Below, piece after piece: positions 1 through 51,807 of a stretch of 51,807 nucleotides of DNA. Under the pieces are notes generated by a model. The model had not been told where the DNA came from and did not search any database. It saw only the letters and a list, made by a program, of their open reading frames with translations. This DNA comes from a virus: positions 1-51,807 of the IMG/VR virus record IMGVR_UViG_3300023179_000153; one strand, 5' to 3'. The position numbers were made by a program, and so were the translations under genes. The number at the start of each line of letters is the position of its first letter. Within the stretch, counting starts at the first letter, position 1.

Positions 1-1146
1 CAAAACTATAAGGGATGGAAAAACTTAATAAAGATAGTATCAGAATCTAATAAACCAGAACACTATTATCACAAACCAAGACTAGATCTGGAAACTATTA
101 AACAGCTTAATACTGGGCATTTAATAGCCATCACTGGGCATCTAGGATCTACGCTGGCAGATATTATTTTGGAAGATTATGAACTAAAGCCAAACTGGAT
201 AGAACTAGGAAAACAGCATATAGAATATCTAAAGCAAATATTTGATAGTAAGGTTTTTTTAGAGGCGCAGTTAATTGATAAAGATAACTTACCAGTACAA
301 GTTAAATTAACAGAAGCTATAAGACACCTAGCTAAACTTACTAATATTAAAGTAATATGTACGCCGGATGCCCACTATTGCAAAAAAGAAGATGCTGTTG
401 ATCAAAGAATATTATTGTGTAATAATTTAAAATTAACTATGCAAGATATTAGTAGAAAAATAGGAAATAATGAAGATGTTCCTTTAGGTTGTTTCTTTTC
501 GTCTGATAACTACCACATTCCTTCTCAAGAAGAGATGAAACAATATCATACCGACACAGAGATTGAAAATACTCAATATGTTGCGAGCTTGATAGAAGAC
601 TATGATATTCTTAGTAAACCAATCTTACCACCATTTAAATGTCCTGTAGGATTTGATGAAGCAGAGTATTTGAGGGAATTGTGTCGTAAGGGGTGGAAAG
701 AAAAAATAGCTAATAATATTCCTAAAGAAGATCATCAAAAATACGTAGATAGAATTAAATACGAACTAGAAGTTTTACAGGGTGCTGGATTAAGCAGCTA
801 CTTTTTAATAGTACAAGATATTGTAAATTTTGTGAGAGACAACGGATGGCTTCCTGGACCGGGCAGAGGGTGTTTCTTACCAGACTCTAGAATTTTAACT
901 CCTAGCGGTGAATTAATACCTATTATTAATATGAATATTGGTGATGAAGTTATAGATGCTTATGGGAATAAGCAAAAAATAACTAATACCTTTCAATATA
1001 AGGTTGAAGAAGAAATACTAGAATTAGAGTTAGAGAACGGTAAGATTATAAGATGTACCAAAGACCATAAATTCTTAACCAAGAATAGAGGATGGATAGA
1101 AGCACAATATCTCACAGAATTAGATGATTTAGTTGAGGTTAAATAA
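1..1146 (+). CDS. dnaE: DNA polymerase III alpha subunit (DnaE), N-terminal piece fused to an N-intein; 5' end outside window
   Basis: This is the first of three pieces of a DnaE-type replicative polymerase. The frame is open from base 1, so the gene starts before the window. The visible part holds the second half of the PHP domain (TGHLGSTLAD, CTPDAHYCKKED) followed by the entry to the polymerase core (YLRELCRKGW, YELEVLQGAGLSSYFLIVQD), ending at LPGPGRG. That last motif is the conserved GPGRGS loop of family C polymerases. At the expected Ser the frame changes into a Cys-initiated intein half of 91 residues and stops with TAA. The missing SAAG continuation is encoded after the next gene. 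Seen directly: the homology and the exact break. Inferred: trans-splicing with the product of 1977-2813 restores the polymerase. The PHP domain may be catalytic or vestigial; this cannot be judged from the part visible. Confidence 0.93.
   Translation, partial: QNYKGWKNLIKIVSESNKPEHYYHKPRLDLETIKQLNTGHLIAITGHLGSTLADIILEDYELKPNWIELGKQHIEYLKQIFDSKVFLEAQLIDKDNLPVQVKLTEAIRHLAKLTNIKVICTPDAHYCKKEDAVDQRILLCNNLKLTMQDISRKIGNNEDVPLGCFFSSDNYHIPSQEEMKQYHTDTEIENTQYVASLIEDYDILSKPILPPFKCPVGFDEAEYLRELCRKGWKEKIANNIPKEDHQKYVDRIKYELEVLQGAGLSSYFLIVQDIVNFVRDNGWLPGPGRGCFLPDSRILTPSGELIPIINMNIGDEVIDAYGNKQKITNTFQYKVEEEILELELENGKIIRCTKDHKFLTKNRGWIEAQYLTELDDLVEVK
871..1143 (+). other. Split intein, N-terminal half (91 aa) in DnaE
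   Basis: It begins with Cys directly after GPGRG. Block A reads CFLPDSRILTPSGE and block B reads CTKDHKFLTKNRGW, including the conserved xxH, and then comes the typical LDDLVEV ending before a stop codon. The 91-residue length fits known naturally split intein N-halves. There is no endonuclease domain inside it. Its partner is the C-half at 1977-2081. Confidence 0.93.
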
Positions 1147-1198
1147 AAAGAACCTCGACCAAGACTTTTTTGGTGTAATCTAGATTAGGGGAATAAAG

Positions 1199-1993
1199 AT
1201 GAAATACATTACACAACAATACTTGATCGATAATGACTACTCAACCAAGGGCGTATCAAATATTTGTTTTAAAGCAAAATGTCAAAAATGTAAAAATAAT
1301 TTTAAATATTCTAGTTTAAAAAAGTTTGTACAAAATAGAAAAGATTTATCTAAAGATCAATGGATGTTATGTCAAAAATGTTTTTTACGATTAAAAACCG
1401 TGGATAATCCTGTGTGGTTAGAAAAAAATAGACAAGCACAAATTATTGCTCAAAATAAACCAGAACAAATACAAAAAAATAAAATAGGAGTTTCAAATTC
1501 TTGGTCAAAAGAACGCAAAGCCAAAGCGTCTGAATATCTTAAAAAAAGATGGAATAACGATGAACAGTTTAAAAATACCGCCCTACAAAATCTACAATAT
1601 GATCCAGATAATTTTATTAAAGGAATAGGTTCTGGTGGTTTAAGAGGAACATACAATAATATACCATATCATAGCGCATTAGAATTATCTTTTATATTGT
1701 GGTGCGAATCAAATAATATACCTATCAAAAGATACGATCTTGATCCAATAGAATATTTAGATGAAAATAAAAATATTAGACAATATTATCCAGACTTCAT
1801 AATTAACACAAAAACTATAGTAGAAATAAAAGGTAAAGGAATATGGTATCAAAAAAATTACGAAAGGAATATATGTAAAATACAAGAAGCAAAAAAACAG
1901 GCAAAAAATTATTGTGTATATTACGATATTGATGAACAAACTAAATTATTTTATAAAAAGGCAAGAAGGATACATCGTGAGAATCAAAAATAA
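1199..1993 (+). CDS. Homing-endonuclease-like PD-(D/E)XK nuclease between the split-intein halves
   Basis: A 264-residue protein with a clear start: an AGGGG ribosome site lies seven bases before ATG. The N-terminus has two CxxC pairs (C28/C31 and C58/C61), probably a zinc knuckle for DNA binding. The middle (about 95-130) is basic and resembles NUMOD-type DNA-binding segments of homing enzymes. The C-terminal part has a nuclease core: YHSALELSF (E162), YYPDF (D199) and VEIKGKG (E209, K211), which matches the E...PD...ExK pattern. It lies between two halves of one intein in the same operon, the fractured-gene arrangement reported for phage-like marine metagenome sequences, where free endonuclease genes sit between split-intein genes. 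Its last 17 bases overlap the start of the C-intein gene. The likely role is homing into intein-less dnaE alleles at the GPGRGS site; a passive, degraded nuclease cannot be excluded. Confidence 0.8.
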   Translation: MKYITQQYLIDNDYSTKGVSNICFKAKCQKCKNNFKYSSLKKFVQNRKDLSKDQWMLCQKCFLRLKTVDNPVWLEKNRQAQIIAQNKPEQIQKNKIGVSNSWSKERKAKASEYLKKRWNNDEQFKNTALQNLQYDPDNFIKGIGSGGLRGTYNNIPYHSALELSFILWCESNNIPIKRYDLDPIEYLDENKNIRQYYPDFIINTKTIVEIKGKGIWYQKNYERNICKIQEAKKQAKNYCVYYDIDEQTKLFYKKARRIHRENQK

Positions 1994-2081
1994 GAAAATT
2001 ATTCAATATAAAGGATATGTTCATGATTTATCTGTCGAAAATTCAAAAACATACAATATCGAAGGAATAGGGGTTCATAAT
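1977..2081 (+). other. Split intein, C-terminal half (35 aa)
   Basis: The segment contains block F (YVHDLSVENSKTYNIEGIG) and block G (VHN) and ends in His-Asn followed by extein Ser+1. These are the residues needed for Asn cyclisation and acyl transfer. The length matches C-halves of natural split inteins. The Ser at 2082-2084 is the Ser of the polymerase GPGRGS motif. Confidence 0.92.
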
Positions 2082-2813
2082 AGTGCGGCTGGTTGTCTAG
2101 TATCATATTTGATAGGCATTACTAGTATTGATCCTATTAAGTATGATCTATTATTTGAAAGATTCTATAATGCTGGTAGAAATTCTAAAGACCATATATC
2201 CATGCCAGATATTGATGTTGACGTTCCTATTAATAAAAGGGAAATAGTTATTGAATATATTAAAAACAAATATGGACATAATAAAGTTTCTCAGATGGTA
2301 ACTTTTAACACTATCAAAGGTAGAGGTGCGCTAAAAGATGTACTAAGAGTTTATGGTAACGTATCTTTTGACGAGATGAATAAAATTACTAAAAATATTC
2401 CCGATGAATCTAAAATTGCTGATGAGCTTCAGGACATGAAAGAAGAAACGGGCGAAGCATCAATTATTAGGTGGTCATTAGAAAATAATATAGATAAGCT
2501 CAAGGAATGGTGTTATATTGACGATCATGATGAATTACAGGGGCCTTTGTCAAAACGCTTTGAACAGGCTATAAGACTAGAAGGCACAAAATCTAATCAG
2601 TCCAAACACGCTGCTGGAATAGCCATCAGTGCAGAACCACTAAGCGAAATTTGTCCTATGGTTTATGACAGTAAAAATGATCAATTAATAGCGGGGATGG
2701 AGATGCAAGATTTGGAGGCTCTAGGTATTATTAAACTAGATATTCTCGGCGTAGCTATGTTAGATAAGATTATGTCTATAAAAGATTTACTACTTGAAGG
2801 AGTAAAATTATGA
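1977..2813 (+). CDS. dnaE: C-intein fused to DnaE palm-domain piece
   Basis: This is the second piece of the polymerase. GTG at 1977 is chosen as start because an AGAAGGA site lies six bases upstream and it gives a C-intein of exactly 35 residues; the frame itself is open further upstream inside the nuclease gene. After the intein the extein begins SAAGCLVSYLIGITSIDP, which continues GPGRG of the first piece without loss. It then carries the family C palm: MPDIDVDV (two catalytic Asp), MVTFNTIKGRGALKDVLRV, SKHAAGIAIS and GIIKLDILG (third Asp). All three predicted metal-binding Asp are therefore in this 278-residue piece (243 without the intein). It stops soon after LDILGVAMLDKI, where ordinary DnaE runs on into the fingers. 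No second intein half is present at this end, so joining to the third piece would have to be non-covalent. Confidence 0.9.
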   Translation: MRIKNKKIIQYKGYVHDLSVENSKTYNIEGIGVHNSAAGCLVSYLIGITSIDPIKYDLLFERFYNAGRNSKDHISMPDIDVDVPINKREIVIEYIKNKYGHNKVSQMVTFNTIKGRGALKDVLRVYGNVSFDEMNKITKNIPDESKIADELQDMKEETGEASIIRWSLENNIDKLKEWCYIDDHDELQGPLSKRFEQAIRLEGTKSNQSKHAAGIAISAEPLSEICPMVYDSKNDQLIAGMEMQDLEALGIIKLDILGVAMLDKIMSIKDLLLEGVKL

Positions 2814-2989
2814 ATAAACAATTTAAAGATTTAAATGTTGATGCTTCATTTACTATGAATGGCATAGAATATACCAAAATTAATCCTGTTAAGATTAGTT
2901 GTTGCAAATCTATTAACGCTCAAGAAAAAAATAATCCTAACAACAAAACATTTGTTCAGCCACTAGTGGAAGTAGAAGTTAATGATTAA
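2810..2989 (+). CDS. Small conserved-type phage protein, function unknown (59 aa)
   Basis: A short gene that begins at ATG overlapping the stop of the polymerase piece (ATGA) and is preceded by GAAGGAG. It ends inside the start of the exonuclease gene, so it fits tightly in the operon. The protein reads FKDLNVDASFTMNGIEYTKI near the start, then a CC pair (KISCCKSINA) and ends in VEVEVND. The pattern of short beta segments followed by a Cys pair and an acidic end resembles small uncharacterised proteins common in phage replication regions. I do not assign a function. Its place between polymerase pieces 2 and 3 is notable, since this is where the polymerase reading frame is broken. Confidence 0.75.
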   Translation: MNKQFKDLNVDASFTMNGIEYTKINPVKISCCKSINAQEKNNPNNKTFVQPLVEVEVND

Positions 2990-3671
2990 TTATAATAAAA
3001 TTTGCGTATTTGATTTTGAGACAGACGGATCTGATCCATCATTCTGTAGTCCGGTTCAAATTGCTGCTGTAATGATAGATCCTATACAATTAGAAATTAT
3101 AAAAGATTCTGAGTTTAATATTAATTTTAAGCCAGAATGTTTGGATCAAAATGAAAACTTTGAATATCAAACAGATATCTTAGACTTTCATGCAAAAGTT
3201 AAAGGAACGTCCAAAGATAATGTCTTATCAGAATGGAAAAAGTATCCAAAACAAGAACATTCTTGGACATTATTTACGAATTATTTAGATAAATATCATA
3301 GTAGATCCTCAAAAAAGAGTCAATTTAGTGCTCCAATAGCTGCTGGTTATAATATTAATCGTTTTGATTTACATATTATAGACAGACTAAGTAAAAAATA
3401 TGGTAATCTAAACAAAGAACAAAGAACCAATCTATTTTATCCAAGAGATGTGATAGATGGTATGAATTTAATATTCTATTGGTTTGAGAGCAATGGAGAC
3501 TTAAAAAGCTACACCCTAGATTCTGTAAGAGACTATTTTGGTATCTCTAAAGATGGCGCACATGACGCTATTAAAGATGTTAAGGATACAGCAGAAATTA
3601 TTATCAGATTCATGAAACTGCATCGTAATTTAAGTAATAAGATTCAGTTTAAAGGATCATTTGTCAAATAG
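2982..3671 (+). CDS. DnaQ-like DEDDh 3'-5' exonuclease
   Basis: A 229-residue protein of the DEDD exonuclease superfamily. Motif I is FDFETDG (D11, E13), motif II is GYNINRFDLHII (D129), and motif III is AHDAIKDVKDTA (H194, D199), which places it in the DEDDh class with epsilon, RNase T and related enzymes. It would remove nucleotides from DNA 3' ends in a two-metal reaction. It lies between two pieces of the polymerase and overlaps both neighbours (8 bases with the small gene, 11 with the next piece), so the best inference is a proofreading subunit made in step with the polymerase. There is no visible clamp-binding peptide. A general exonuclease role in repair or nucleotide recycling is the alternative. 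Confidence 0.88.
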   Translation: MINYNKICVFDFETDGSDPSFCSPVQIAAVMIDPIQLEIIKDSEFNINFKPECLDQNENFEYQTDILDFHAKVKGTSKDNVLSEWKKYPKQEHSWTLFTNYLDKYHSRSSKKSQFSAPIAAGYNINRFDLHIIDRLSKKYGNLNKEQRTNLFYPRDVIDGMNLIFYWFESNGDLKSYTLDSVRDYFGISKDGAHDAIKDVKDTAEIIIRFMKLHRNLSNKIQFKGSFVK

Positions 3672-6021
3672 TATGAAACAGTATCAGTATTCTTGCGGTT
3701 GTGGATTTAAGGCAGATAATGCTGAAGATCTAACAAAAATAGAATTTAATCCTAAAATTGAAAATATTAATCTTGATTGTTATAGAACGTGGTCATTAAT
3801 TTCAGACGGTAATACTAAGGGTGTTTTTCAGCTAGAATCTAGGCTGGGAAAATCTATTGCTAAAAAACTTAAGCCAGAAAATATAGAACAATTATCTGCT
3901 TTAATTGCAGTATTAAGACCTGGATGTATAAGTGGAGATACAAAAATATCTATATCTAGATACACCCATAAAGATGGTAGAATAAGACAGAAACTTATAA
4001 AAATAAGAGATTTATATAAAAAACAAAACAGTTTTACAACTATTTTATCGTATAATGAAAAAACTGGCACTATTATAAACAATAAAGTTAATAGTGTTAT
4101 TTATAATGGGCAAAAGGAGTGTTTCAAGGTTATTTTTAATACGCACTCGAATATGTACGCTTCAAACGGAAGAAAACAATATCGTTTAGAATGTACCGAT
4201 GACCATCAACTGTTGACTTCTACTGGCTGGAAGGAATTAAGACATATACAGCCTGGTGAAAGGGTTTTGGTTAATAAAAGAAAACACACAAGAAAATCAA
4301 AACTTGGAAAAAGGTCTTTTAGAACAAAATGCTATCATACATACGAATATAAATGCATATTCTGTGATTGGAAAGCTGGTTCACTAGATGTTAACCATAT
4401 TATTGAGAATAGACATCACAATAATAAACCTAATAATTTATGTTTTTTGTGTCCAAACCATCATAGGCAATTTACGGAAGGTTCATTAAATATTAAACAG
4501 GTAAGGGCTCTACAAAAAAAACACAAACTACCAAAAACAATAGACGGTAAATGGGCAACTATAGTAGATAAAGTTTCGGTAGGGATTAAAGATGTTTATG
4601 ATATTTCTATGAAAACTCCCCACCATAATTTTATAGCTGGTGACGTTATTGTTCATAACTGTTTGGAAGCTATGAGAGACGGTAAAAGTGTTACCAATCA
4701 TTATATTGATAAAAAAAACGGATTAGAATCCGTGGACTACTTCCATCCTTCACTAGAGCCTATACTTAAAAATACTTATGGAGAAATGATATATCAAGAG
4801 CAGGCAATGGAAATAGCCAAACGTATTGCTGGTTTTAATCTACAAGAAGCAGATATGTTAAGAAAAGCTATAGGTAAGAAAAAGCCAGAAGAAATGGCTA
4901 AGGTTAAACAAAGATTTTTAGAGGGAGCAAAACAATTAGATATTATATCTGAACAAGATGCCGAACAAATATTCGGATGGATTGAGAAAAGCCAAAGATA
5001 TAGTTTTAATAAGTCTCATTCTGTAAGTTATGCTATTAATGCTTATTTATCGGCTTATACAAAAGCTCATTTCCCTAAGATATTTTTTGCATCATATTTA
5101 AGGTTCGCAAAAGATAAAATAGATCCTCAAGAAGAAATTAAAGCATTAGTACAAAATGCTAATGAGATGGATATTACTATTCATACTCCTGATTTGAGAA
5201 ATCTTAATAAACTTTTCATACTAAAAAATAATAAAATATACTTTGGTTTAACAGATATAAAGGGTGTTGGTGATTCTGTATTTGATAAATTAAAAGATAT
5301 TTGTGCAAATATAAATTTAAGTGATTTAAATTGGTTACAAGTACTATTTTTAGTTTTAGACAAAATTAATTCTACAGCAGCTAAAGGACTGATACAAAGC
5401 GGGTCTATCAGCTTTATTAATAAGTCTAGGAATAGTATGATGTTCGAATATGGGCTAATCAGTGGACTAACTAAAAAAGAAAAAGAGCATCTTATAAATG
5501 GTTTAAATGATTTTAAAGACTTGGGTTCTGGACTAATGCACATATTGAATATGCCACGAGTTAATAAAAATAGAAAGCAAATTATACTAGATAGTATTAA
5601 TACTTTAAATAATCCTCCATATAGTTTGGAAGATAGTCCAGAATGGATAGCGGATTGTGAGGATACTTTATTGGGATGTTCTATAACTTGTTCTAAGCTA
5701 GATATGTATGATATTAGTATGACTAATATAACGTGTAAAGAGCTTAAGAATACTGTTCTTAAAGATAATCTTATTCTGGGTGGTGAGATTGATTTTATCA
5801 ATATTACTAAAACAAAAACAGGCAAAAATCCCGGCCAAGAGATGGCTTTTGTTACTATGACAGACACAACAGGTTCTATAGACTCAATAATCTTTTTTCC
5901 TGAAAAATATAAAGAATACAAAAATTTATTATTTGCGAATAATATTATTATTGTAAAGGGCACAAAAACCAAAACTGGTGATGGTCTTATAGTAGACAAG
6001 GCTTATGTAGCCAAAACTTGA
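3661..6021 (+). CDS. dnaE: DNA polymerase III alpha subunit (DnaE), C-terminal piece with an internal HNH intein
   Basis: This is the third piece of the polymerase. A short N-terminal segment with a Cys cluster (YSCGCGFKAD) leads into NTKGVFQLESRLGK and LSALIAVLRPG, the part of DnaE that normally follows the palm. A 245-residue intein interrupts RPG/CLEAMRDG. The rest is fingers and helix-hairpin region (YGEMIYQEQAMEIAKRIAGF, ADMLRKAIGKK, FNKSHSVSYAINAYLSAYTK, FGLTDIKGVGD) and a C-terminal OB fold (GEIDFINITKTKTGK, VTMTDTTGSIDSIIFFPEKY). The spliced protein would be about 541 residues. The start is probably TTG at 3661, five bases after AAGGA; ATG at 3673 is in frame but badly spaced. It overlaps the exonuclease stop by 11 bases. 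The catalytic Asp residues are not here, so it can work only together with the palm piece. Confidence 0.92.
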   Translation: MSNSMKQYQYSCGCGFKADNAEDLTKIEFNPKIENINLDCYRTWSLISDGNTKGVFQLESRLGKSIAKKLKPENIEQLSALIAVLRPGCISGDTKISISRYTHKDGRIRQKLIKIRDLYKKQNSFTTILSYNEKTGTIINNKVNSVIYNGQKECFKVIFNTHSNMYASNGRKQYRLECTDDHQLLTSTGWKELRHIQPGERVLVNKRKHTRKSKLGKRSFRTKCYHTYEYKCIFCDWKAGSLDVNHIIENRHHNNKPNNLCFLCPNHHRQFTEGSLNIKQVRALQKKHKLPKTIDGKWATIVDKVSVGIKDVYDISMKTPHHNFIAGDVIVHNCLEAMRDGKSVTNHYIDKKNGLESVDYFHPSLEPILKNTYGEMIYQEQAMEIAKRIAGFNLQEADMLRKAIGKKKPEEMAKVKQRFLEGAKQLDIISEQDAEQIFGWIEKSQRYSFNKSHSVSYAINAYLSAYTKAHFPKIFFASYLRFAKDKIDPQEEIKALVQNANEMDITIHTPDLRNLNKLFILKNNKIYFGLTDIKGVGDSVFDKLKDICANINLSDLNWLQVLFLVLDKINSTAAKGLIQSGSISFINKSRNSMMFEYGLISGLTKKEKEHLINGLNDFKDLGSGLMHILNMPRVNKNRKQIILDSINTLNNPPYSLEDSPEWIADCEDTLLGCSITCSKLDMYDISMTNITCKELKNTVLKDNLILGGEIDFINITKTKTGKNPGQEMAFVTMTDTTGSIDSIIFFPEKYKEYKNLLFANNIIIVKGTKTKTGDGLIVDKAYVAKT
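3925..4659 (+). other. Cis-splicing intein with HNH endonuclease domain (245 aa)
   Basis: The intein starts CISGDTKISI after extein RPG and ends FIAGDVIVHN before extein Cys+1 (CLEAMRDG). Block B reads CTDDHQLLTSTGW and is followed by a PGERVLV strand. Between the splicing halves is an HNH nuclease: CIFC, then DVNHIIENRHHNNKPNNL and CPNHHRQF, with two Cys pairs for a zinc. All splicing residues are intact (Cys1, block B His, terminal His-Asn, Cys+1), so it should splice. Its endonuclease type differs from the PD-(D/E)XK nuclease beside the split intein in the same polymerase. Confidence 0.93.
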
Positions 6022-9561: not shown

Positions 9562-9929
9562 ATAATAAACTAGCGTTTTACTACGATTCTATGCAAATGC
9601 CAGCAGACAGTATTATAGAAAATTTAAAGAAATATTTGTTTACTCAAAATAAATATGATGATTTTGTAATATTCACGGACATCATGTTTCCAACAAATAC
9701 AGAATATGGTTTATTTCCAACCTTTTATGCTAAATTTTTTAATGGTACTATAGTAGTTTTTGATACTGATAATTATCAGTATAATAAAAATAATTGGCTA
9801 TATATTCATGATATGCAAAGTTTTGATCAGTCGAGTCTGAACCATAAATATAATCTAATTATATATGATGAATCCACCGAACAAAAATATAGAATGGTTA
9901 ATTATAATGAACTACAACAATCTCTCTGA
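9558..9929 (+). CDS. Small protein of the glycan operon, function unknown
   Basis: A 123-residue protein with an alpha/beta look: NKLAFYYDSMQMPADSIIEN at the start, DDFVIFTDIMFP, then TFYAKFFNGTIVVFDTDNY and NLIIYDEST. Proteins with the same order of motifs are found beside glycosyltransferases in other phages, but I know of no assigned role. It overlaps the gene before it by four bases and its last 23 bases overlap the start of a homing endonuclease gene. Its own end (YRMVNYNELQQSL) looks like a natural C-terminus, so the endonuclease probably did not cut it short. Confidence 0.6.
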   Translation: MNNKLAFYYDSMQMPADSIIENLKKYLFTQNKYDDFVIFTDIMFPTNTEYGLFPTFYAKFFNGTIVVFDTDNYQYNKNNWLYIHDMQSFDQSSLNHKYNLIIYDESTEQKYRMVNYNELQQSL

Positions 9930-10701
9930 CCAACAAAAAAAAGAATTACTTCAAAAAGAATATGAGGTTCATAATAAAAGTTTTAAAGATATTGCTGACT
10001 CATACAATACTTATGCAAACAAGGTTAGAAGAGATGCTATCAAGTTTAATATAAATATAAAAAATAAGAGTGAAGCACAAACTAATGCACTTAAAGCTGG
10101 AAGATCAAAGCATCCAACAAAAGGTAAGGCTAGATCTGATAAAGTAAAACAGCAAATTGGTAATGGGGTTATGCGATCTTGGGAAAAATTAGATAAAAAA
10201 ACTATAGAAGCAAGGAAAGAAAAGGCTAGGCAAAACTGGAATAATTTATCAGAAGATTCTAAAGAATATATATTACAACAAGCAAACAGCGCTGTAAGAG
10301 AAGCTAGTAAAAAAGGATCAAAGCTGGAACTATTCTTGCTAGATAACCTATTAAAAGATGGGTATAAGGTTGATTTTCATAAAGAACAAATTTTATCAAA
10401 TACCAAGTTGCAGATAGACCTTTTTCTACCTACACTAAATGTGGCTATAGAAGTTGATGGATTGTCGCACTTTGAGCCGGTGTGGGGTCAACAAACATTA
10501 AATAGAAATAAAACATATGATAATAAAAAAACAGGATTAATTATTGGTAAAGGTTTAGTATTAATTAGGATAAAACAACTTAAAGACTTTTCACCATCAC
10601 GAGCTAATAAGATTTACAACGAACTAGTTGATGTTCTAGATAAAATTATTAAAAAATATCCAGAACCTGATAACAGGACTATTACTATAGGAGACAATTG
10701 A
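9907..10701 (+). CDS. Free-standing EDxHD-type homing endonuclease
   Basis: A 264-residue protein. The ATG at 9907 is preferred over in-frame starts further upstream because those would lie deep in the preceding gene. The N-terminus (KELLQKEYEVHNKSFKDIAD, then NTYANKVRRDAIKF) looks like a helix-turn-helix, and residues 70-125 are a basic NUMOD3-like linker. The C-terminal nuclease is Vsr-like: E141 in SKLELFL, D171 in QIDLFLP, and IEVDGLSHFEPVWG with E182, D184 and H188, the signature of the EDxHD family typified by I-Bth0305I. Such enzymes cut intein-less, intron-less or simply unoccupied alleles so that their gene is copied in. Here it is inserted between two unrelated genes without an intron or intein, sharing bases with both. 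Confidence 0.85.
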   Translation: MNYNNLSDQQKKELLQKEYEVHNKSFKDIADSYNTYANKVRRDAIKFNINIKNKSEAQTNALKAGRSKHPTKGKARSDKVKQQIGNGVMRSWEKLDKKTIEARKEKARQNWNNLSEDSKEYILQQANSAVREASKKGSKLELFLLDNLLKDGYKVDFHKEQILSNTKLQIDLFLPTLNVAIEVDGLSHFEPVWGQQTLNRNKTYDNKKTGLIIGKGLVLIRIKQLKDFSPSRANKIYNELVDVLDKIIKKYPEPDNRTITIGDN

Positions 10702-17370: not shown

Positions 17371-20271
17371 CTATTCATTAATAGTTAAAGTAGATATGGA
17401 TTCGTCATATGACGGAATATATGTTCCTGTTACTCCAACAAGAACTATGTTTTCTGTTGCATAGGTTTGGGTTGTTGAGCCAAGAAGAATTTGGAAGGTA
17501 TCATCAACTGACGGCTCGCTATTAAAGTTAATAGTTAAGTTGCCAGAAGTAAAGACTACTGAATCGATTATAGATGGTCCGCTTATTATAGAGTTTACTG
17601 TTAAAGATCCATCTATAATATTCGTAGTGCCGCTGTATCCGACAGCTTCTTGTAGTATAAGAGTTCCTAAGCCGTTTTTTATTAACCCGGCGCTAGTAGG
17701 TTGTATAGTTCCACCAACAGTTATTTGACAACCATCGGATACGTCAAATGTTGGAGTTGTATCAAATATTAAGTCTGATGAAATTGTGTGAGTACCAGCT
17801 TGTACAGTTACGGTCGGGTCTGTTCCGTTGTTAAATAATCTAAATGTTCCTCCTGTGATAAGATTATCATTTCCTATAAGTGTGGTACTATTAAATCCTT
17901 GAACGGTACTAATATTAGGATTAGCGTACTGGAAAGAATCTTCTGGTATATTCAAGTCCATTGTTGCTGAAGAGTATTCGCTACCTATGGTTAATGGGGG
18001 TGGAGACGTAAGTGTTATAGGATTCCCCAACGTTGCACCAAAAGCATAATCGAAAAAGGTTATTAATTTACCGGTTCTCACATGTAAACTATTAACAACA
18101 GATGCGGGTAAGCGAGTCTGTAGCCAAACATCTCCCGTCATTGTTGATGTTCCAATATTAAGAGTAAATTCTGGGTCAGGACTTCCGTCTTGCTTATCAA
18201 AATTATCTGGTGGCGTTAGAAATCTAACATATCCATTAGGATCACAGGCAAATGTTAGCTTATCACTACCAATTCTGAATGCGCTGTTAGCATCAAAAGT
18301 ACCAAAAAGCCCGGTTTGATTGCCATAGGAACTACCTCCTAGAATAATATCAGAATTTGTTGCTCCTGATGGTATCAGTAAGGTTCTAGAAAAAGTTGAT
18401 GGTTCTCTGTATACTTCTGCTATTAAATTTCCATTATTGTCTCTTGCTCTTCGAGCAAGTAATAGTGCTACAGGCTCGCTAAAATCAGTACTACCAAAAA
18501 CAGGCAGCTGCGGATCATTTGCTTTACCTATTATACTACCAGTAGCGCTACCACCAGTAGCATCACCCGCTAAAATAATAGTTCCTTCATTAAATAATAG
18601 ATGTTTACTACCAGATGGATCTCTACTTTTCCAGTTAGAAACATTATCAGTAAATACCCATGTACCAGTACCTTCTTTTTGTATTCTCAACTTCACAGGA
18701 CTGAATCCTGGGAAAACCTGATACACAGTATTATATTCTGTACTAGATCCATCTAGAATTAATGTTCTTCCAGGTGCTGGGTATGCATTTAATGGACATA
18801 TAGAAGATGTATAATTTATTAAATCTATATTAATTGGTCCATTATCAGCAACTATTCTTGTATTTCTATCTATAGTAATTGTAGCTTCAACAGGATCTGT
18901 TATTGTCTCTATTTCACACACTATAGTAGCTGATGGAGTTACTGTATTTGTGTGTGTTGGTGTTGGCGTCATAGAAGATGTTCTAGTCATGGTGGGAGTA
19001 GGGGTTCCTGTTTCTGAACTGGTTCTAGTAAAAGTTGGTGTTCTGGTTGGAGTATCTGTAGGCGTAAAACTAATACTGGCTGTTCTACTATTTGTCGGGG
19101 TATATGTTGGAGTAGCACTTTCTGTAGTTGTTGGACTGTTAGTTTTGGTGGTTGTTGTGGTATGGGTTTGAGTATAAGTCATGGATGGTGTAACGGTATA
19201 TGTTGGAGTTATTGTGGTTGTACTACTTATAGTAGGCGTACTAGTGTTTGTTTGCGTGGCCGATCTACTATTTGTAGGTGTATAAGTAGCTGTATTAGAT
19301 AATGATACACTCACAGTTGATGTTATTGTAGATGATAATGTTTTTGATTGAGTCCTAGTAAAAGTTGGTGTTCTAGGCGGTGTAGAGCTTTGACTTATAG
19401 AGGGCGTTACTGTTGTGGTCAAACTTATGCTAGGAGTTTGTGTAGACGTACATGTAGGGGTTGAATAGTTAGATAGGGTGACGGAAGAAGTAACGGTACC
19501 GGTGCGCGTAGAAGTAATTGTTTGGGTTTGCGTCTGACTTAAACTCATACTTAATGTTGGCGTCTGAGTAGATGTTAGGGTCTTAGTTGGTGTTGTAGAA
19601 GCTGTATTAGTGTTAGTTACTGTCAAACTCTTACTATTAGTTTTTGTATTAGTAATAGTAGAAGACGAAGTTTTAGTAGCAGTAGAAGTAGGTCCAGCAG
19701 TACGTGTGCCACTTGACGTTTTAGTTGTTGTCATAGTACAACTACCAGTTTTTGTCGCAGTAGGAGTGGCGCTATTAGTTCTAGTAGCGGTATATGTTGG
19801 GGATGCTGTTTTTGTTGGTGTTTCTGTTTGAGTATTAGTTCTAGTTAGTGTAGGAGTAGAAGTTATTGTTTTAGTGGGCGTAAATGTTATAGATTGTGTG
19901 GGTGTTTTTGTATTACTGCGTGTTAGACTGACTGAGGGTGTTGGAGTAGAATAATTAGAAGGAGTACTACTTTTATTAGGAGTTTTTACAGGCGTTCCGG
20001 TATCAGTTCTGGTTTTAGTTATACTATTTGTAATTGTAGGCTCTGGTGTTTTAGATATTTCAGGACTAGAACTTTTTGTACGAGTTCTTGTAGTACTTTG
20101 ACTATTACTATGAGTTTTAGTAGCGGTTAATGTTGGTAACGGAGTTTTAGTTGGCGAACTATTAGGAGTTTTCGTAGGAGTTTTAGTAGATGTTCTAGTT
20201 GGTGTTTTAGCAGGAGTTGCGCTGCCGCTAACAGTTATTCCTGGTGTTGGTGTTGGTGTACATAGTGTCAT
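17371..20271 (-). CDS. Mucin-like Thr/Pro/Ser-rich virion protein with beta-rich C-terminus
   Basis: A 966-residue protein at the downstream end of the structural operon. Residues 4 to about 445 are almost only Thr, Ser, Pro and Lys/Arg in TPT-type repeats (MTLCTPTPTPGITVSG, then TPTRTSTKTPTKTP), a low-complexity, extended, mucin-like tract. From about 450 it becomes ordinary and beta-rich: ITIDRNTRIVADNG, GTGTWVFTDNVSNW and, near the end, GLIKNGLGTLILQEAVGYSG followed by TTNIIDGSLTV, which matches the autotransporter-associated beta-strand repeat. Thus a long stalk followed by a beta-helix-like head. No signal peptide. The likely role is a tail-tip adhesin or fibre. The dense Thr/Ser tract is a good potential acceptor for the convergent glycosyltransferase cluster; that is inference only. 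Confidence 0.75.
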   Translation of the reverse strand: MTLCTPTPTPGITVSGSATPAKTPTRTSTKTPTKTPNSSPTKTPLPTLTATKTHSNSQSTTRTRTKSSSPEISKTPEPTITNSITKTRTDTGTPVKTPNKSSTPSNYSTPTPSVSLTRSNTKTPTQSITFTPTKTITSTPTLTRTNTQTETPTKTASPTYTATRTNSATPTATKTGSCTMTTTKTSSGTRTAGPTSTATKTSSSTITNTKTNSKSLTVTNTNTASTTPTKTLTSTQTPTLSMSLSQTQTQTITSTRTGTVTSSVTLSNYSTPTCTSTQTPSISLTTTVTPSISQSSTPPRTPTFTRTQSKTLSSTITSTVSVSLSNTATYTPTNSRSATQTNTSTPTISSTTTITPTYTVTPSMTYTQTHTTTTTKTNSPTTTESATPTYTPTNSRTASISFTPTDTPTRTPTFTRTSSETGTPTPTMTRTSSMTPTPTHTNTVTPSATIVCEIETITDPVEATITIDRNTRIVADNGPINIDLINYTSSICPLNAYPAPGRTLILDGSSTEYNTVYQVFPGFSPVKLRIQKEGTGTWVFTDNVSNWKSRDPSGSKHLLFNEGTIILAGDATGGSATGSIIGKANDPQLPVFGSTDFSEPVALLLARRARDNNGNLIAEVYREPSTFSRTLLIPSGATNSDIILGGSSYGNQTGLFGTFDANSAFRIGSDKLTFACDPNGYVRFLTPPDNFDKQDGSPDPEFTLNIGTSTMTGDVWLQTRLPASVVNSLHVRTGKLITFFDYAFGATLGNPITLTSPPPLTIGSEYSSATMDLNIPEDSFQYANPNISTVQGFNSTTLIGNDNLITGGTFRLFNNGTDPTVTVQAGTHTISSDLIFDTTPTFDVSDGCQITVGGTIQPTSAGLIKNGLGTLILQEAVGYSGTTNIIDGSLTVNSIISGPSIIDSVVFTSGNLTINFNSEPSVDDTFQILLGSTTQTYATENIVLVGVTGTYIPSYDESISTLTINE
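18925..20259 (-). repeat. Thr/Pro/Ser low-complexity coding repeat
   Basis: About 445 codons built from short TxT, TPT and SxT units, mostly ACT, ACA, CCA and AGT/TCT codons. Units vary in order, so it is a degenerate tandem repeat and not a recent exact duplication. It ends where the sequence changes to VCEIETITDPVEA. Confidence 0.9.
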
Positions 20272-50055: not shown

Positions 50056-50095
50056 AAAAATAGAGTATGATACTTATCAATACACCTAATACTCT
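50056..50095 (-). terminator. Hairpin with T-run after the homing endonuclease gene
   Basis: On the minus strand AGAGTAT pairs with ATACTCT (seven perfect pairs) across a 20-base loop and is followed by ATTTTTG. The large loop makes it weaker than the one after the capsid gene. It starts at the endonuclease stop. Confidence 0.5.
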
Positions 50096-51483
50096 TATAC
50101 TTTTAACATCCATTTGGCCTGGCCACAATCATATATTTTAAATAGATTGTTATCATAGCCACTATTACCAGGGAATTTTAGCCTATGAAAAGTAATAAAT
50201 CCATCAGTCCATCTAAAGCTAGGATAAGTATGAACATAATCAAATCCTAAATTTTTTAGATATGATCCCTTACCATATCTTCTATCTATAAACGTCATAA
50301 TACTGTCGGGTTTTTTATCTTGCTGAGCAGCTTTTAATAGTTTGCTAAAAGAACCAACAACACTATTAAATTTCTTGTTACAAAACCGGCTAATCTCATA
50401 ATCATTATTTTTTACTCTTTTGAGTCTTAATGCTGCTACAATTTCATCCTTAAATGTCAAAATATATGTGGCTCCTCGACCCTTACCCATCAAATGATTA
50501 GTCTCAAAAAAGCTATCAGAGCTTTTATCGTCGATTTTATCTAGTTTACAGTGTCGTGCAAATATTCTGTAACTCTTATTTAGTTTATTCAACACAACGC
50601 TTTTAACAATATCAAATTTGTCTCTTATTTCGTCCTCTCTAAAAAATAAACTATCATATCCAGCATTATCATAAGTTTCTTTTTTATTAACATGATAATT
50701 TGGATCCATCTTAGCCGCATCACTATGCCAGTATAATCCATCACATTCTATTAATAGATTATCAATTTTAAAATCAGCAATTTTTGTTTCTAGTCTAAAT
50801 TGGCAAAAATAATTAAATTTTTCTTCTTGCAAAAAAGATTCAAAGATTTGTTCTAGCTTAGTTTTAGAGGGTTCCATTTGTAAAGCTTCTTCTATTCCAT
50901 ATTGGGTGACTAGTTTACCAAAATGAGATCTAGAAAAACCTATTTCTGTTGCAATTTCTGGTCGTGTTTTACCGTCATAAGTTATTATAATACCTTTGTT
51001 AATTTTGGTTTTTTTCATTTTTTTTGCTGCTTCTTTTGCGACATTAGAATATTTCATAATATTATCTACTCCGTATCTATCCATCAGGGTTTGCTTCTGT
51101 TTGTCTACAATAGATTGTACCAGCATAGGATTTTCATTCCCATATCTTTCTAAATTAGTTTTTTTGATTTGTTGTTTGAAATCATTAGATTGTAATCTAT
51201 CCATATTAGTATCTCTAATTTTATCTCTTACTTGCTGTCTCTGTGCCGAATTCTTGACCCCGTGCTTTGCTAAACTAATATCTTCTCTTTTTTTATATTT
51301 ACATTCCAGTTTACCACAAGAATCTTTAGCTACAGGATCTCTTTGTTTTATATAGGACTTATATGCCTTAATAGTATAGTCATTACAGTAGTCACATTTC
51401 ACATAAACATTTCTAGAAGAACCAATAGACAAATCCTCTGGTTTATATCCGTTTTTTTCTTTTGTTAATTCCGAATCAATCAT
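50095..51483 (-). CDS. EDxHD homing endonuclease with GNAT-like C-terminal domain
   Basis: A 462-residue protein. ATG at 51483 is chosen since in-frame starts farther up lie in or before the terminator. Residues 30-61 have Cys pairs (CDYC and CGKLEC). Residues 70-145 contain NUMOD-like repeats (KHGVKNSAQ, RYGNENPML, RYGVDNIMK) and 165-200 a helix-turn-helix (TRPEIATEIGFSRSHFGKLV), all of DNA-binding type. The Vsr-like nuclease has E211, D237 and IECDGLYWHSD (E246, D248, H253). The C-terminal 150 residues (NHLMGKGRGATYILTFKDEI, RFCNKKFNSVVGSFSKLLKA) look like a GNAT fold; its role is unknown. It is a free-standing homing gene inserted between the capsid gene and the fibre genes. Confidence 0.85.
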   Translation of the reverse strand: MIDSELTKEKNGYKPEDLSIGSSRNVYVKCDYCNDYTIKAYKSYIKQRDPVAKDSCGKLECKYKKREDISLAKHGVKNSAQRQQVRDKIRDTNMDRLQSNDFKQQIKKTNLERYGNENPMLVQSIVDKQKQTLMDRYGVDNIMKYSNVAKEAAKKMKKTKINKGIIITYDGKTRPEIATEIGFSRSHFGKLVTQYGIEEALQMEPSKTKLEQIFESFLQEEKFNYFCQFRLETKIADFKIDNLLIECDGLYWHSDAAKMDPNYHVNKKETYDNAGYDSLFFREDEIRDKFDIVKSVVLNKLNKSYRIFARHCKLDKIDDKSSDSFFETNHLMGKGRGATYILTFKDEIVAALRLKRVKNNDYEISRFCNKKFNSVVGSFSKLLKAAQQDKKPDSIMTFIDRRYGKGSYLKNLGFDYVHTYPSFRWTDGFITFHRLKFPGNSGYDNNLFKIYDCGQAKWMLKV

Positions 51484-51521
51484 TGTATTTGCTTTCTTAT
51501 AAGAGAGATCGGCCCAACCAT
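51480..51521 (-). CDS. Possible 13-residue leader ORF before the homing endonuclease
   Basis: ATG at 51521 follows GAAGGAG with three bases between, and the 13-codon frame (MVGPISLIRKQIQ) ends in TGA that overlaps the endonuclease ATG (ATGA). The ribosome site is better than anything before the endonuclease itself, so it may serve for coupled translation. It could also be a remnant of an older gene start or chance. Confidence 0.35.
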   Translation of the reverse strand: MVGPISLIRKQIQ

Positions 51522-51535
51522 AAACTCCTTCTATA

Positions 51536-51571
51536 GTAAAATAAAAAGAGCCACCAGTCAAGGTAGCTCTT
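51536..51571 (-). terminator. Rho-independent terminator after the major capsid gene
   Basis: Minus strand AAGAGCTACC pairs with GGTGGCTCTT (ten pairs, one G-T) across a six-base loop and is followed by TTTATTTTAC. It lies 37 bases after the capsid stop and before the homing endonuclease. It probably limits read-through from the highly expressed capsid gene. Confidence 0.85.
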
Positions 51572-51607
51572 CTTATTATGTATCTAATTATTAGATATCC
51601 TATAATA

Positions 51608-51807
51608 TTATAGGGCACCTAACAATACACGTCTATTATCTAGAACTGCGAATCCTTGCTCTGCCCAGCCGTAGAAACCGGCTCTCTTCTGACGATGAAG
51701 AGTATCGTCTTCGAAGATTTGAACTTCTTGACGAACTGGCATAATAAAGCTGTCTCTCTTACGAAGATCAAGACCAACAACAAGCTCAACCTTATCATCA
51801 CTACCAG
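51608..51807 (-). CDS. Major capsid protein, C-terminal end (partial)
   Basis: The last 65 codons before a TAA stop at 51608-51610; the 5' part lies outside the window. The translation includes KVELVVGLDLRKRDSFIMPV, RQEVQIFEDDTLHRQKRAGF and YGWAEQGFAVLDNRRVLLGA. Capsid proteins of tailed phages commonly end with a strand like IFEDxxxHRQxRAxFYGWxEQGxAVLDNRR. Codons here use G/C at the third position more often than in neighbours, as expected of a very abundant protein. It is followed by the strongest terminator of the window. Confidence 0.8.
   Translation of the reverse strand, partial: GSDDKVELVVGLDLRKRDSFIMPVRQEVQIFEDDTLHRQKRAGFYGWAEQGFAVLDNRRVLLGAL

What the first reader, a model, noticed from the sequence alone, without database searches (positions are those of the whole stretch)
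871..2081. Split intein at the GPGRG/S palm motif of DnaE with a nuclease gene between its halves
The polymerase frame breaks after GPGRG into a 91-residue intein half; after a complete nuclease gene, a 35-residue intein half leads back to SAAGCLVSYL with no residue lost. All splicing residues are intact. Splicing at the active-site loop of the replicative polymerase means that DNA synthesis depends on it. It follows the fractured-gene pattern known from phage-like metagenome sequences. The cyanobacterial DnaE split intein lies at another site, so this looks like an independent case.
Basis: partly seen in the sequence, partly recalled or inferred. Interest (0 to 1): 0.85.

Follow-up and report, generated by a model that had tools for sequence, protein, structure and literature searches.

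The report
Mobile split intein in phage polymerase
A virus's DNA-copying enzyme is cut in two by a selfish mobile element: each half carries half of a protein splicer that should rejoin them, and the DNA-cutting gene between the halves, which probably spreads the element, sits behind a look-alike of its own target site.

Summary
A 91-aa intein N-half starts at Cys 871 after GPGRG. A nuclease gene follows (1199-1993). A 35-aa C-half (GTG 1977) ends at Asn 2081 before SAAGCLVSYL. All class-1 splicing residues are present, and 80 relatives carry the uninterrupted site.

It is not a lone case. It belongs to a family of DnaE GRG/S inteins found on 55 contigs (window included) as two separate ORFs, in every stage of a homing cycle: empty; split with intact, decayed or deleted nuclease; and contiguous (phage G, Clostridium). 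The whole N-half/nuclease/C-half block moved recently: 92% DNA identity to one relative, against 73-79% in the flanking polymerase. Nuclease-less copies keep both intein halves, with gaps as small as 50 bp, which argues against RNA splicing.

The nuclease is PD-(D/E)XK (T7 endonuclease I/TnsA-like). Between the N-half stop and the nuclease start lies a new feature: an 18-bp inverted mimic of the uninserted GPGRG|S target. It is the second-best match in the whole window and co-varies with each locus's own site, suggesting an I-TevI-style autoregulatory operator.

The arrangement is a known kind (fractured genes, 2009). The gene/site with this nuclease, the full cycle and the operator look new. 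Splicing, cleavage and repression are untested.

The parts
1..870 (+). DnaE N-extein: PHP domain and start of palm, 5' end off the contig, ending ...WLPGPGRG
   Evidence: PHP PF02811 and DNA_pol3_alpha PF07733; phrog_405
871..1146 (+). Intein N-half, 91 aa plus TAA stop; Cys1, TKDH block B
   Evidence: TIGR01445 38.2 bits; alignment A2, C/F/T..H invariant; dN/dS 0.06-0.09
1149..1166 (-). Proposed operator: inverted mimic of the uninserted homing site (reads AGT CTT GGT CGA GGT TCT = S-L-G-R-G-S on the minus strand)
   Evidence: PWM of coding sites: second-best hit in all 51.8 kb, 12.0 bits against 23.0 for the true site and 6.7 for the next; group test 90.8 against null -353 +/- 26; own-site covariation p=1e-4
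1199..1993 (+). Free-standing nuclease gene, 264 aa: N-terminal CxxC...CxxC, helical middle, C-terminal PD-(D/E)XK domain (E162, P198-D199, E209-x-K211); presumed homing endonuclease
   Evidence: invariant catalytic set in alignment A1; T7 endonuclease I alignment; Phage_endo_I in 9 of 11 and TnsA_N in 7 of 11 members; model; dN/dS 0.06-0.09
1977..2081 (+). Intein C-half, 35 aa, GTG start overlapping the nuclease 3' end; ends V-H-N
2082..2813 (+). DnaE C-extein: rest of palm, starting at Ser+1 (SAAGCLVSYL...)
   Evidence: PF07733 184 bits
2982..3671 (+). DnaQ-like 3'-5' exonuclease between the two polymerase genes (context)
   Evidence: PF00929; phrog_192
3661..6021 (+). Separate gene for DnaE fingers/HHH/OB part, with a contiguous HNH intein at 3925-4662 (context)
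   Evidence: the same site is empty in L004 (LRPGTLEAM)

Best explanation
This is a mobile fractured-gene element in a phage DnaE gene. Mechanism: (1) the PD-(D/E)XK nuclease cuts intein-free DnaE alleles at the codons for GPGRG|SAAG, and repair copies the whole block (N-half, nuclease, C-half) into the cut [inferred; movement as one unit is shown by the identity step]. (2) In the recipient, DnaE is then made as two polypeptides; the intein halves associate and trans-splice them (Cys1 thioester, transfer to Ser+1, Asn35 cyclisation), giving an intact PHP+palm protein, which works with the separately encoded fingers protein [residues shown, reaction inferred]. (3) An 18-bp mimic of the uninserted target lies just upstream of the nuclease gene and probably lets the nuclease repress its own gene, as I-TevI does [motif and covariation shown, binding inferred]. 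(4) When homing pressure ends, the nuclease decays or is deleted, but the polymerase stays fractured because precise loss of the split intein is rare [states shown].
For: Splicing: C1, T..H, HN, S+1 conserved in all 55 split contigs found (alignments). A close contiguous relative (L146) folds as a Hint domain, pLDDT 94, pTM 0.84, matching gp41-1, NrdJ-1 and Npu DnaE. dN/dS 0.04-0.15 for the halves. Mobility: window against L012 insert 91-95% identical with dS 0.16-0.44, exteins 73-79% with dS 2.0-2.7; the step lies within about 60 bp of the junctions; at least 80 empty relatives. Nuclease decay: L026, L124 broken; L128, L129, L133-137, L138, L149 remnants; L021, L139-141, L143, L159 none; at least 10 presence/absence changes on the intein tree. 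Against RNA splicing: gaps of 50-52 bp with stops in L128 and L138, no Rfam intron. Nuclease: E-PD-ExK invariant, T7 endonuclease I/TnsA similarity. Operator; precedent in PMC2988022.
Against: No biochemical evidence for splicing, cleavage or repression. The nuclease target has not been shown; recognition of -15..+3 is inferred from the mimic. Loci are related, so group statistics for the operator overstate independence; the promoter test beside it was weak (93 against null 87.3 +/- 2.6). The nuclease model has low pTM (0.45), and its best PDB match has E = 0.11. Tree forks are often unsupported.
Confidence: 0.85

Rival explanations
1. The two halves are joined at RNA level: the insert is an intron with a homing endonuclease and the intein-like sequence is incidental.
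For: Introns with nuclease genes occur in phage DnaE; phage G has a GIY-YIG gene interrupting DnaE just downstream of this site.
Against: Both flanks encode matching Hint halves under purifying selection; relatives keep the break with only 50-90 bp between the halves; no group I/II intron in Rfam.
Confidence: 0.02
2. The polymerase is a dead or decaying gene, or works as non-covalently associated pieces without splicing (as described for phage genes-in-pieces ribonucleotide reductase).
For: This virus clade already runs DnaE as two separate genes without an intein (gap 806-888 bp in 69 of 70 empty relatives), so pieces can work together.
Against: The break splits the GRG|S motif itself; splicing residues are conserved in all 55 split contigs, including those that lost the nuclease; extein dN/dS 0.04-0.12.
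Confidence: 0.05
3. The 18-bp mimic is not an operator but a relic of a target duplication from when the nuclease gene entered the intein, or an antisense segment pairing with the GPGRG codons in the mRNA.
For: It sits at the edge of the nuclease gene; most copies are in reverse orientation; no clear promoter was found beside it.
Against: It co-varies with each locus's own site at codon positions 1+2 (p=4e-4) but not at the wobble position (p=0.13), the wrong pattern for RNA pairing; some copies are forward (L017, L203, L161, and L134 with a decayed nuclease); a neutral relic should not track the site.
Confidence: 0.35
4. The nuclease is a chance neighbour or repair enzyme, and the split intein is an ancient, immobile feature of the polymerase.
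For: Nuclease-free split copies exist.
Against: Insert dS is several-fold below extein dS; close relatives are empty; nuclease and C-half overlap and travel together.
Confidence: 0.05

Closest known systems
Fractured genes with split inteins from ocean metagenomes (Dassa et al. 2009, doi 10.1093/nar/gkp095; not held, known through citing papers PMC3653736, PMC11766414, PMC12350094)
   Same: Conserved phage-like enzyme gene interrupted by a split intein with a free-standing endonuclease gene between the halves
   Different: That nuclease family is EDxHD/Vsr-like; here it is E-PD-ExK, T7 endonuclease I/TnsA-like. Whether that study included this DnaE site could not be checked. Target mimic, repeated nuclease loss and recent block transfer are added here
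Split intein with nuclease-like ORF in uvsW of T4-like phages (Proteus PM2 L010; Salmonella S16 has a matching N-half)
   Same: Related N- and C-halves (A2 E=6e-20, A3 E=7e-7) and an intervening TnsA-like protein; the nuclease model matches a 291-aa PM2 protein of the same length in BFVD
   Different: Host gene is a helicase; the nuclease is not detectable with profile A1
Contiguous DnaE inteins at the same site: Bacillus phage G gp329, Lactococcus phage 949, Clostridium sp.
   Same: Same GRG/S insertion point
   Different: One polypeptide, cis-splicing; other or no nuclease
Cyanobacterial split DnaE intein (Ssp/Npu DnaE)
   Same: Split intein in DnaE, same Hint fold
   Different: Different site (empty here), widely separated genes, no nuclease between
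Aes123 PolB1 split intein (PDB 9hth)
   Same: Split intein named for a DNA polymerase; same fold
   Different: PolB, cysteine-less
I-TevI operator (PMC2988022)
   Same: Mimic of the homing site upstream of the nuclease gene
   Different: Group I intron, GIY-YIG enzyme; repression shown there, not here

Membership tests
Class 1 split intein | Cys/Ser at 1, block B T..H, C-terminal HN, Cys/Ser/Thr at +1 | tested here: met
Class 1 split intein | Hint fold | tested here: met
   Contiguous close relative L146: pTM 0.84, best PDB hits all Hint; the window halves themselves were not folded together
Class 1 split intein | Halves on separate polypeptides that trans-splice | not testable with these tools
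   Separate ORFs shown; reaction needs the bench
Fractured gene (split intein plus free-standing nuclease gene) | Nuclease ORF with its own start and stop between the intein halves | tested here: met
EDxHD/Vsr-like homing endonucleases of fractured genes | EDxHD catalytic motif | tested here: inconclusive
   Invariant residues are E162, P198-D199, E209-K211; no EDxHD model was at hand, the best profile matches are T7 endonuclease I and TnsA
PD-(D/E)XK nuclease, T7 endonuclease I/TnsA group | E...PD...ExK in the matching fold | tested here: met
   Foldseek best PDB hit TnsA prob 0.97 but E=0.11; below Pfam cut-offs for the window protein
Homing endonuclease | Element present/absent polymorphism at one site and transfer independent of the host gene | tested here: met
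Homing endonuclease | Cleaves the empty site | not testable with these tools
   needs a cleavage assay
I-TevI-type autorepressor | Homing-site mimic upstream of the nuclease gene | tested here: met
I-TevI-type autorepressor | Mimic overlaps the promoter and is bound by the nuclease | tested here: inconclusive
   -10-like enrichment weak; binding not testable

The most novel reading that the evidence does not exclude
The PD-(D/E)XK nuclease of this split intein is a homing endonuclease that represses its own gene by binding an inverted copy of its uninserted target (1149-1166), and nuclease, operator and host-gene target co-evolve across the family; the element is thus a self-limiting gene drive that fractures replicative polymerase genes and leaves them permanently dependent on protein trans-splicing after the nuclease is lost.
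Probability: 0.5. Interest if true: 0.75.

Novelty: new variant of a known kind. Interest (0 to 1): 0.6.

Why it matters
Where split inteins come from and why genes stay split are open questions. This one site shows the stages side by side: empty, contiguous, nuclease fused in frame to the N-half (L031/L160), split with nuclease, split with dying nuclease, and split with none. The family also supplies dozens of new natural split-intein pairs for protein ligation, and a predicted operator/target pair that lets nuclease specificity be tested from sequence alone.

Tried and rejected
RNA intron: no Rfam hit and nuclease-less gaps of 50-90 bp. Per-locus nucleotide match of the gap to its own junction: mostly not significant, because wobble positions differ; the PWM and codon-level tests were needed. 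Promoter beside the operator: only a weak excess of -10-like hexamers. A4 alignment of N- and C-halves together was misaligned and dropped. RNA antisense pairing of the mimic: disfavoured by the wobble pattern. Dassa et al. 2009 could not be read, so whether this site was in its list is unknown. The nuclease profile did not detect the PM2 intervening gene, although Pfam and the viral fold search link both to the TnsA-like group. L117 (bacterial MAG, possibly frameshifted) was left out of the counts. No tRNA in the window, so the host remains unknown.

Full report
The observation. In the window, an ORF open at the contig's left end (1-1146) encodes the PHP domain and first part of the palm of a DnaE-type DNA polymerase up to WLPGPGRG. 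It then switches, at Cys codon 871-873, into a 91-residue intein N-half that ends at a TAA stop. A complete 264-aa gene follows (1199-1993). A GTG start at 1977, with AAGGA six bases upstream, opens a 35-residue C-half ending VHN at 2081, followed without loss by SAAGCLVSYL. Profiles agree: DNA_pol3_alpha is divided between the two ORFs and TIGR01445 intein_Nterm begins exactly at the Cys. The joined extein matched 80 viral loci without interruption at 81-90% identity, most of which read GPGRGSAAGC in one ORF. The finding is therefore confirmed in every detail.

The family. Scans with the N-half, an N-half alignment and the nuclease brought in dozens of relatives. By profile search, 55 contigs, the window included and some near-identical, carry the halves on separate ORFs at this GRG/S site. 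All keep Cys1, T..H, HN and Ser+1. Of these, 33 have an apparently full-length nuclease, 1 has the nuclease fused in frame to the N-half (L031/L160), 11 have a broken or remnant nuclease, 6 have none, and 4 have another insert (GIY-YIG-like with NUMOD3 in L163-165; a D12 methyltransferase plus a possible restriction enzyme in L161). The same site holds contiguous inteins in Bacillus phage G, Lactococcus phage 949, two Clostridium genomes and three viral contigs.

Trans-splicing, not RNA splicing. Nuclease-less relatives keep the two halves as separate ORFs with gaps as small as 50-52 bp (L128, L138), too short for a self-splicing intron; L022/L129 and L023/L138 still show the 3' scrap of the deleted nuclease gene. 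Rfam finds no intron. A contiguous close relative (L146, 129 aa) is predicted with pLDDT 94.2 and pTM 0.84 and matches gp41-1, NrdJ-1 and Npu DnaE inteins. The joined window intein itself matches NrdJ-1 and DnaE inteins in the PDB by sequence. That the halves actually splice is inference.

Mobility. Between the window and L012 the insert is 91-95% identical at DNA level (N-half, nuclease, C-half dS 0.44, 0.35, 0.16). The flanking polymerase is 73% and 79% identical with dS 2.7 and 2.0. The step lies within about 60 bp of both junctions. The three pieces therefore moved as one block more recently than the host genes diverged. Purifying selection acts on the nuclease (dN/dS 0.06-0.09) and on the halves (0.04-0.15). 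On the intein tree at least ten changes between nuclease present and absent are needed; L131 (intact) and L128 (deleted) are neighbours with a starred branch. Many forks are weak, so the number ten is approximate.

The nuclease. Eleven homologues share the set E162, P198-D199, E209-x-K211 and, in most, CxxC...CxxC. This is the E-PD-ExK pattern with, from memory, the spacing of T7 endonuclease I, to which the profile aligns best in the PDB (E=0.05). Phage_endo_I is matched by 9 and TnsA_N by 7 of 11 members. The model (pLDDT 86, pTM 0.45) finds TnsA first in the PDB (probability 0.97, E=0.11) and endonuclease I/TnsA-like phage proteins in BFVD, among them a 291-aa Proteus phage PM2 protein whose length equals that of the ORF between uvsW split-intein halves in that phage. 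So a comparable arrangement exists in cultured T4-like phages.

The target mimic. In the gap between N-half stop and nuclease start, most nuclease-bearing loci carry, usually inverted, a sequence that translates to something like GPGRGS. I scored gaps with a position weight matrix built only from the coding sites (-15..+3). The summed best score of 27 loci is 90.8, against -353.2 +/- 26.0 for dinucleotide shuffles; other segments of the site show little or nothing. The first 80 nt of the nuclease genes give z = -0.1, and nuclease-less gaps give z = 2.8, mainly from L134, which still has a forward copy. In the window the mimic (1149-1166) is the second-best hit in 51.8 kb, at 12.0 after the true site at 23.0; the next is 6.7. 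Its last codon is usually Ser (12 of 19), as in the empty site, not Cys as in the occupied one. Residues 2-3 of the mimic follow each locus's own site (GPARG in L156 and L162, GVGRG in L016, GC.RG in L192, GT.RG in L161): 24 of 36 against 16.2 +/- 1.7, p=1e-4; codon positions 1+2 p=4e-4, position 3 not significant. This pattern fits a protein-binding site rather than RNA pairing. Related loci are not independent, so these p-values are optimistic. The precedent is I-TevI, whose operator has 15/20 identity to its homing site, overlaps the promoter and mediates autorepression (PMC2988022).

The enzyme. In this clade DnaE is two genes even without the intein: a PHP+palm gene of about 627 aa and a fingers/OB gene, 806-888 bp apart in 69 of 70 empty relatives; in the window the DnaQ-like exonuclease gene lies between them. 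Trans-splicing therefore rebuilds the first of two polymerase genes, and the second has its own contiguous HNH intein in the window, absent from L004.

Novelty. The arrangement is the fractured gene of Dassa et al. 2009, which I could not read; held papers cite it for ribonucleotide reductases and for an EDxHD/Vsr nuclease family. A split intein in a phage DNA polymerase is not new in itself (Aes123 PolB1). What looks new is the DnaE GRG/S split family with a PD-(D/E)XK nuclease, the complete set of homing states at one site, the recent block transfer, and the co-varying target mimic. I rate it a new variant of a known kind.

Noticed in passing
window 3925-4662: Second, contiguous intein with an HNH domain in the fingers gene of DnaE at LRPG/C; the site is empty in L004 (LRPGT) and in many relatives, where +1 is Cys, Thr or Ser.
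   Followed up: partly
window 2813-3661: DnaE is broken between palm and fingers without any intein; in the window a DnaQ-like exonuclease gene lies between. The same break (806-888 bp) is in 69 of 70 empty relatives, but L016 and L027 have the C-part continuous: a natural two-subunit DnaE.
   Followed up: partly
L161 6543-8836: The gap between the intein halves holds a nuclease remnant, a D12 adenine methyltransferase and an ORF with an EIDHKYPYY motif: possibly a whole restriction-modification system carried inside a split intein.
   Followed up: partly
L170 5130-5702: An MT-A70-type methyltransferase gene sits with the nuclease between the intein halves.
   Followed up: partly
L024 7276-8169, L025 7258-7737, L021 5588-7318, L139 6373-6885, L140 6398-8104, L170 6715-8376: The C-part ORF ends in another intein N-half, so these DnaE genes look fractured at two or more sites, some at FNK/R next to the cyanobacterial site.
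   Followed up: no
L146 6016-6402: A contiguous mini-intein with only a five-residue linker between N- and C-part, placed among split inteins in the tree (weak support): possibly a healed split intein.
   Followed up: partly
window 9865-10701 and 50095-51618 (-): Two more nuclease-like genes; the second matches DUF7487 and weakly DUF559, and the first has an EVDG.SH motif suggestive of EDxHD/Vsr-like enzymes.
   Followed up: partly
L010 2314-5046: Proteus phage PM2 uvsW is split by related intein halves with a TnsA-like ORF between, annotated only as hypothetical.
   Followed up: partly
window 17371-20271 (-): 966-aa protein whose first half is a Thr/Ser/Pro-rich repeat (TPTRTxTxT).
   Followed up: no
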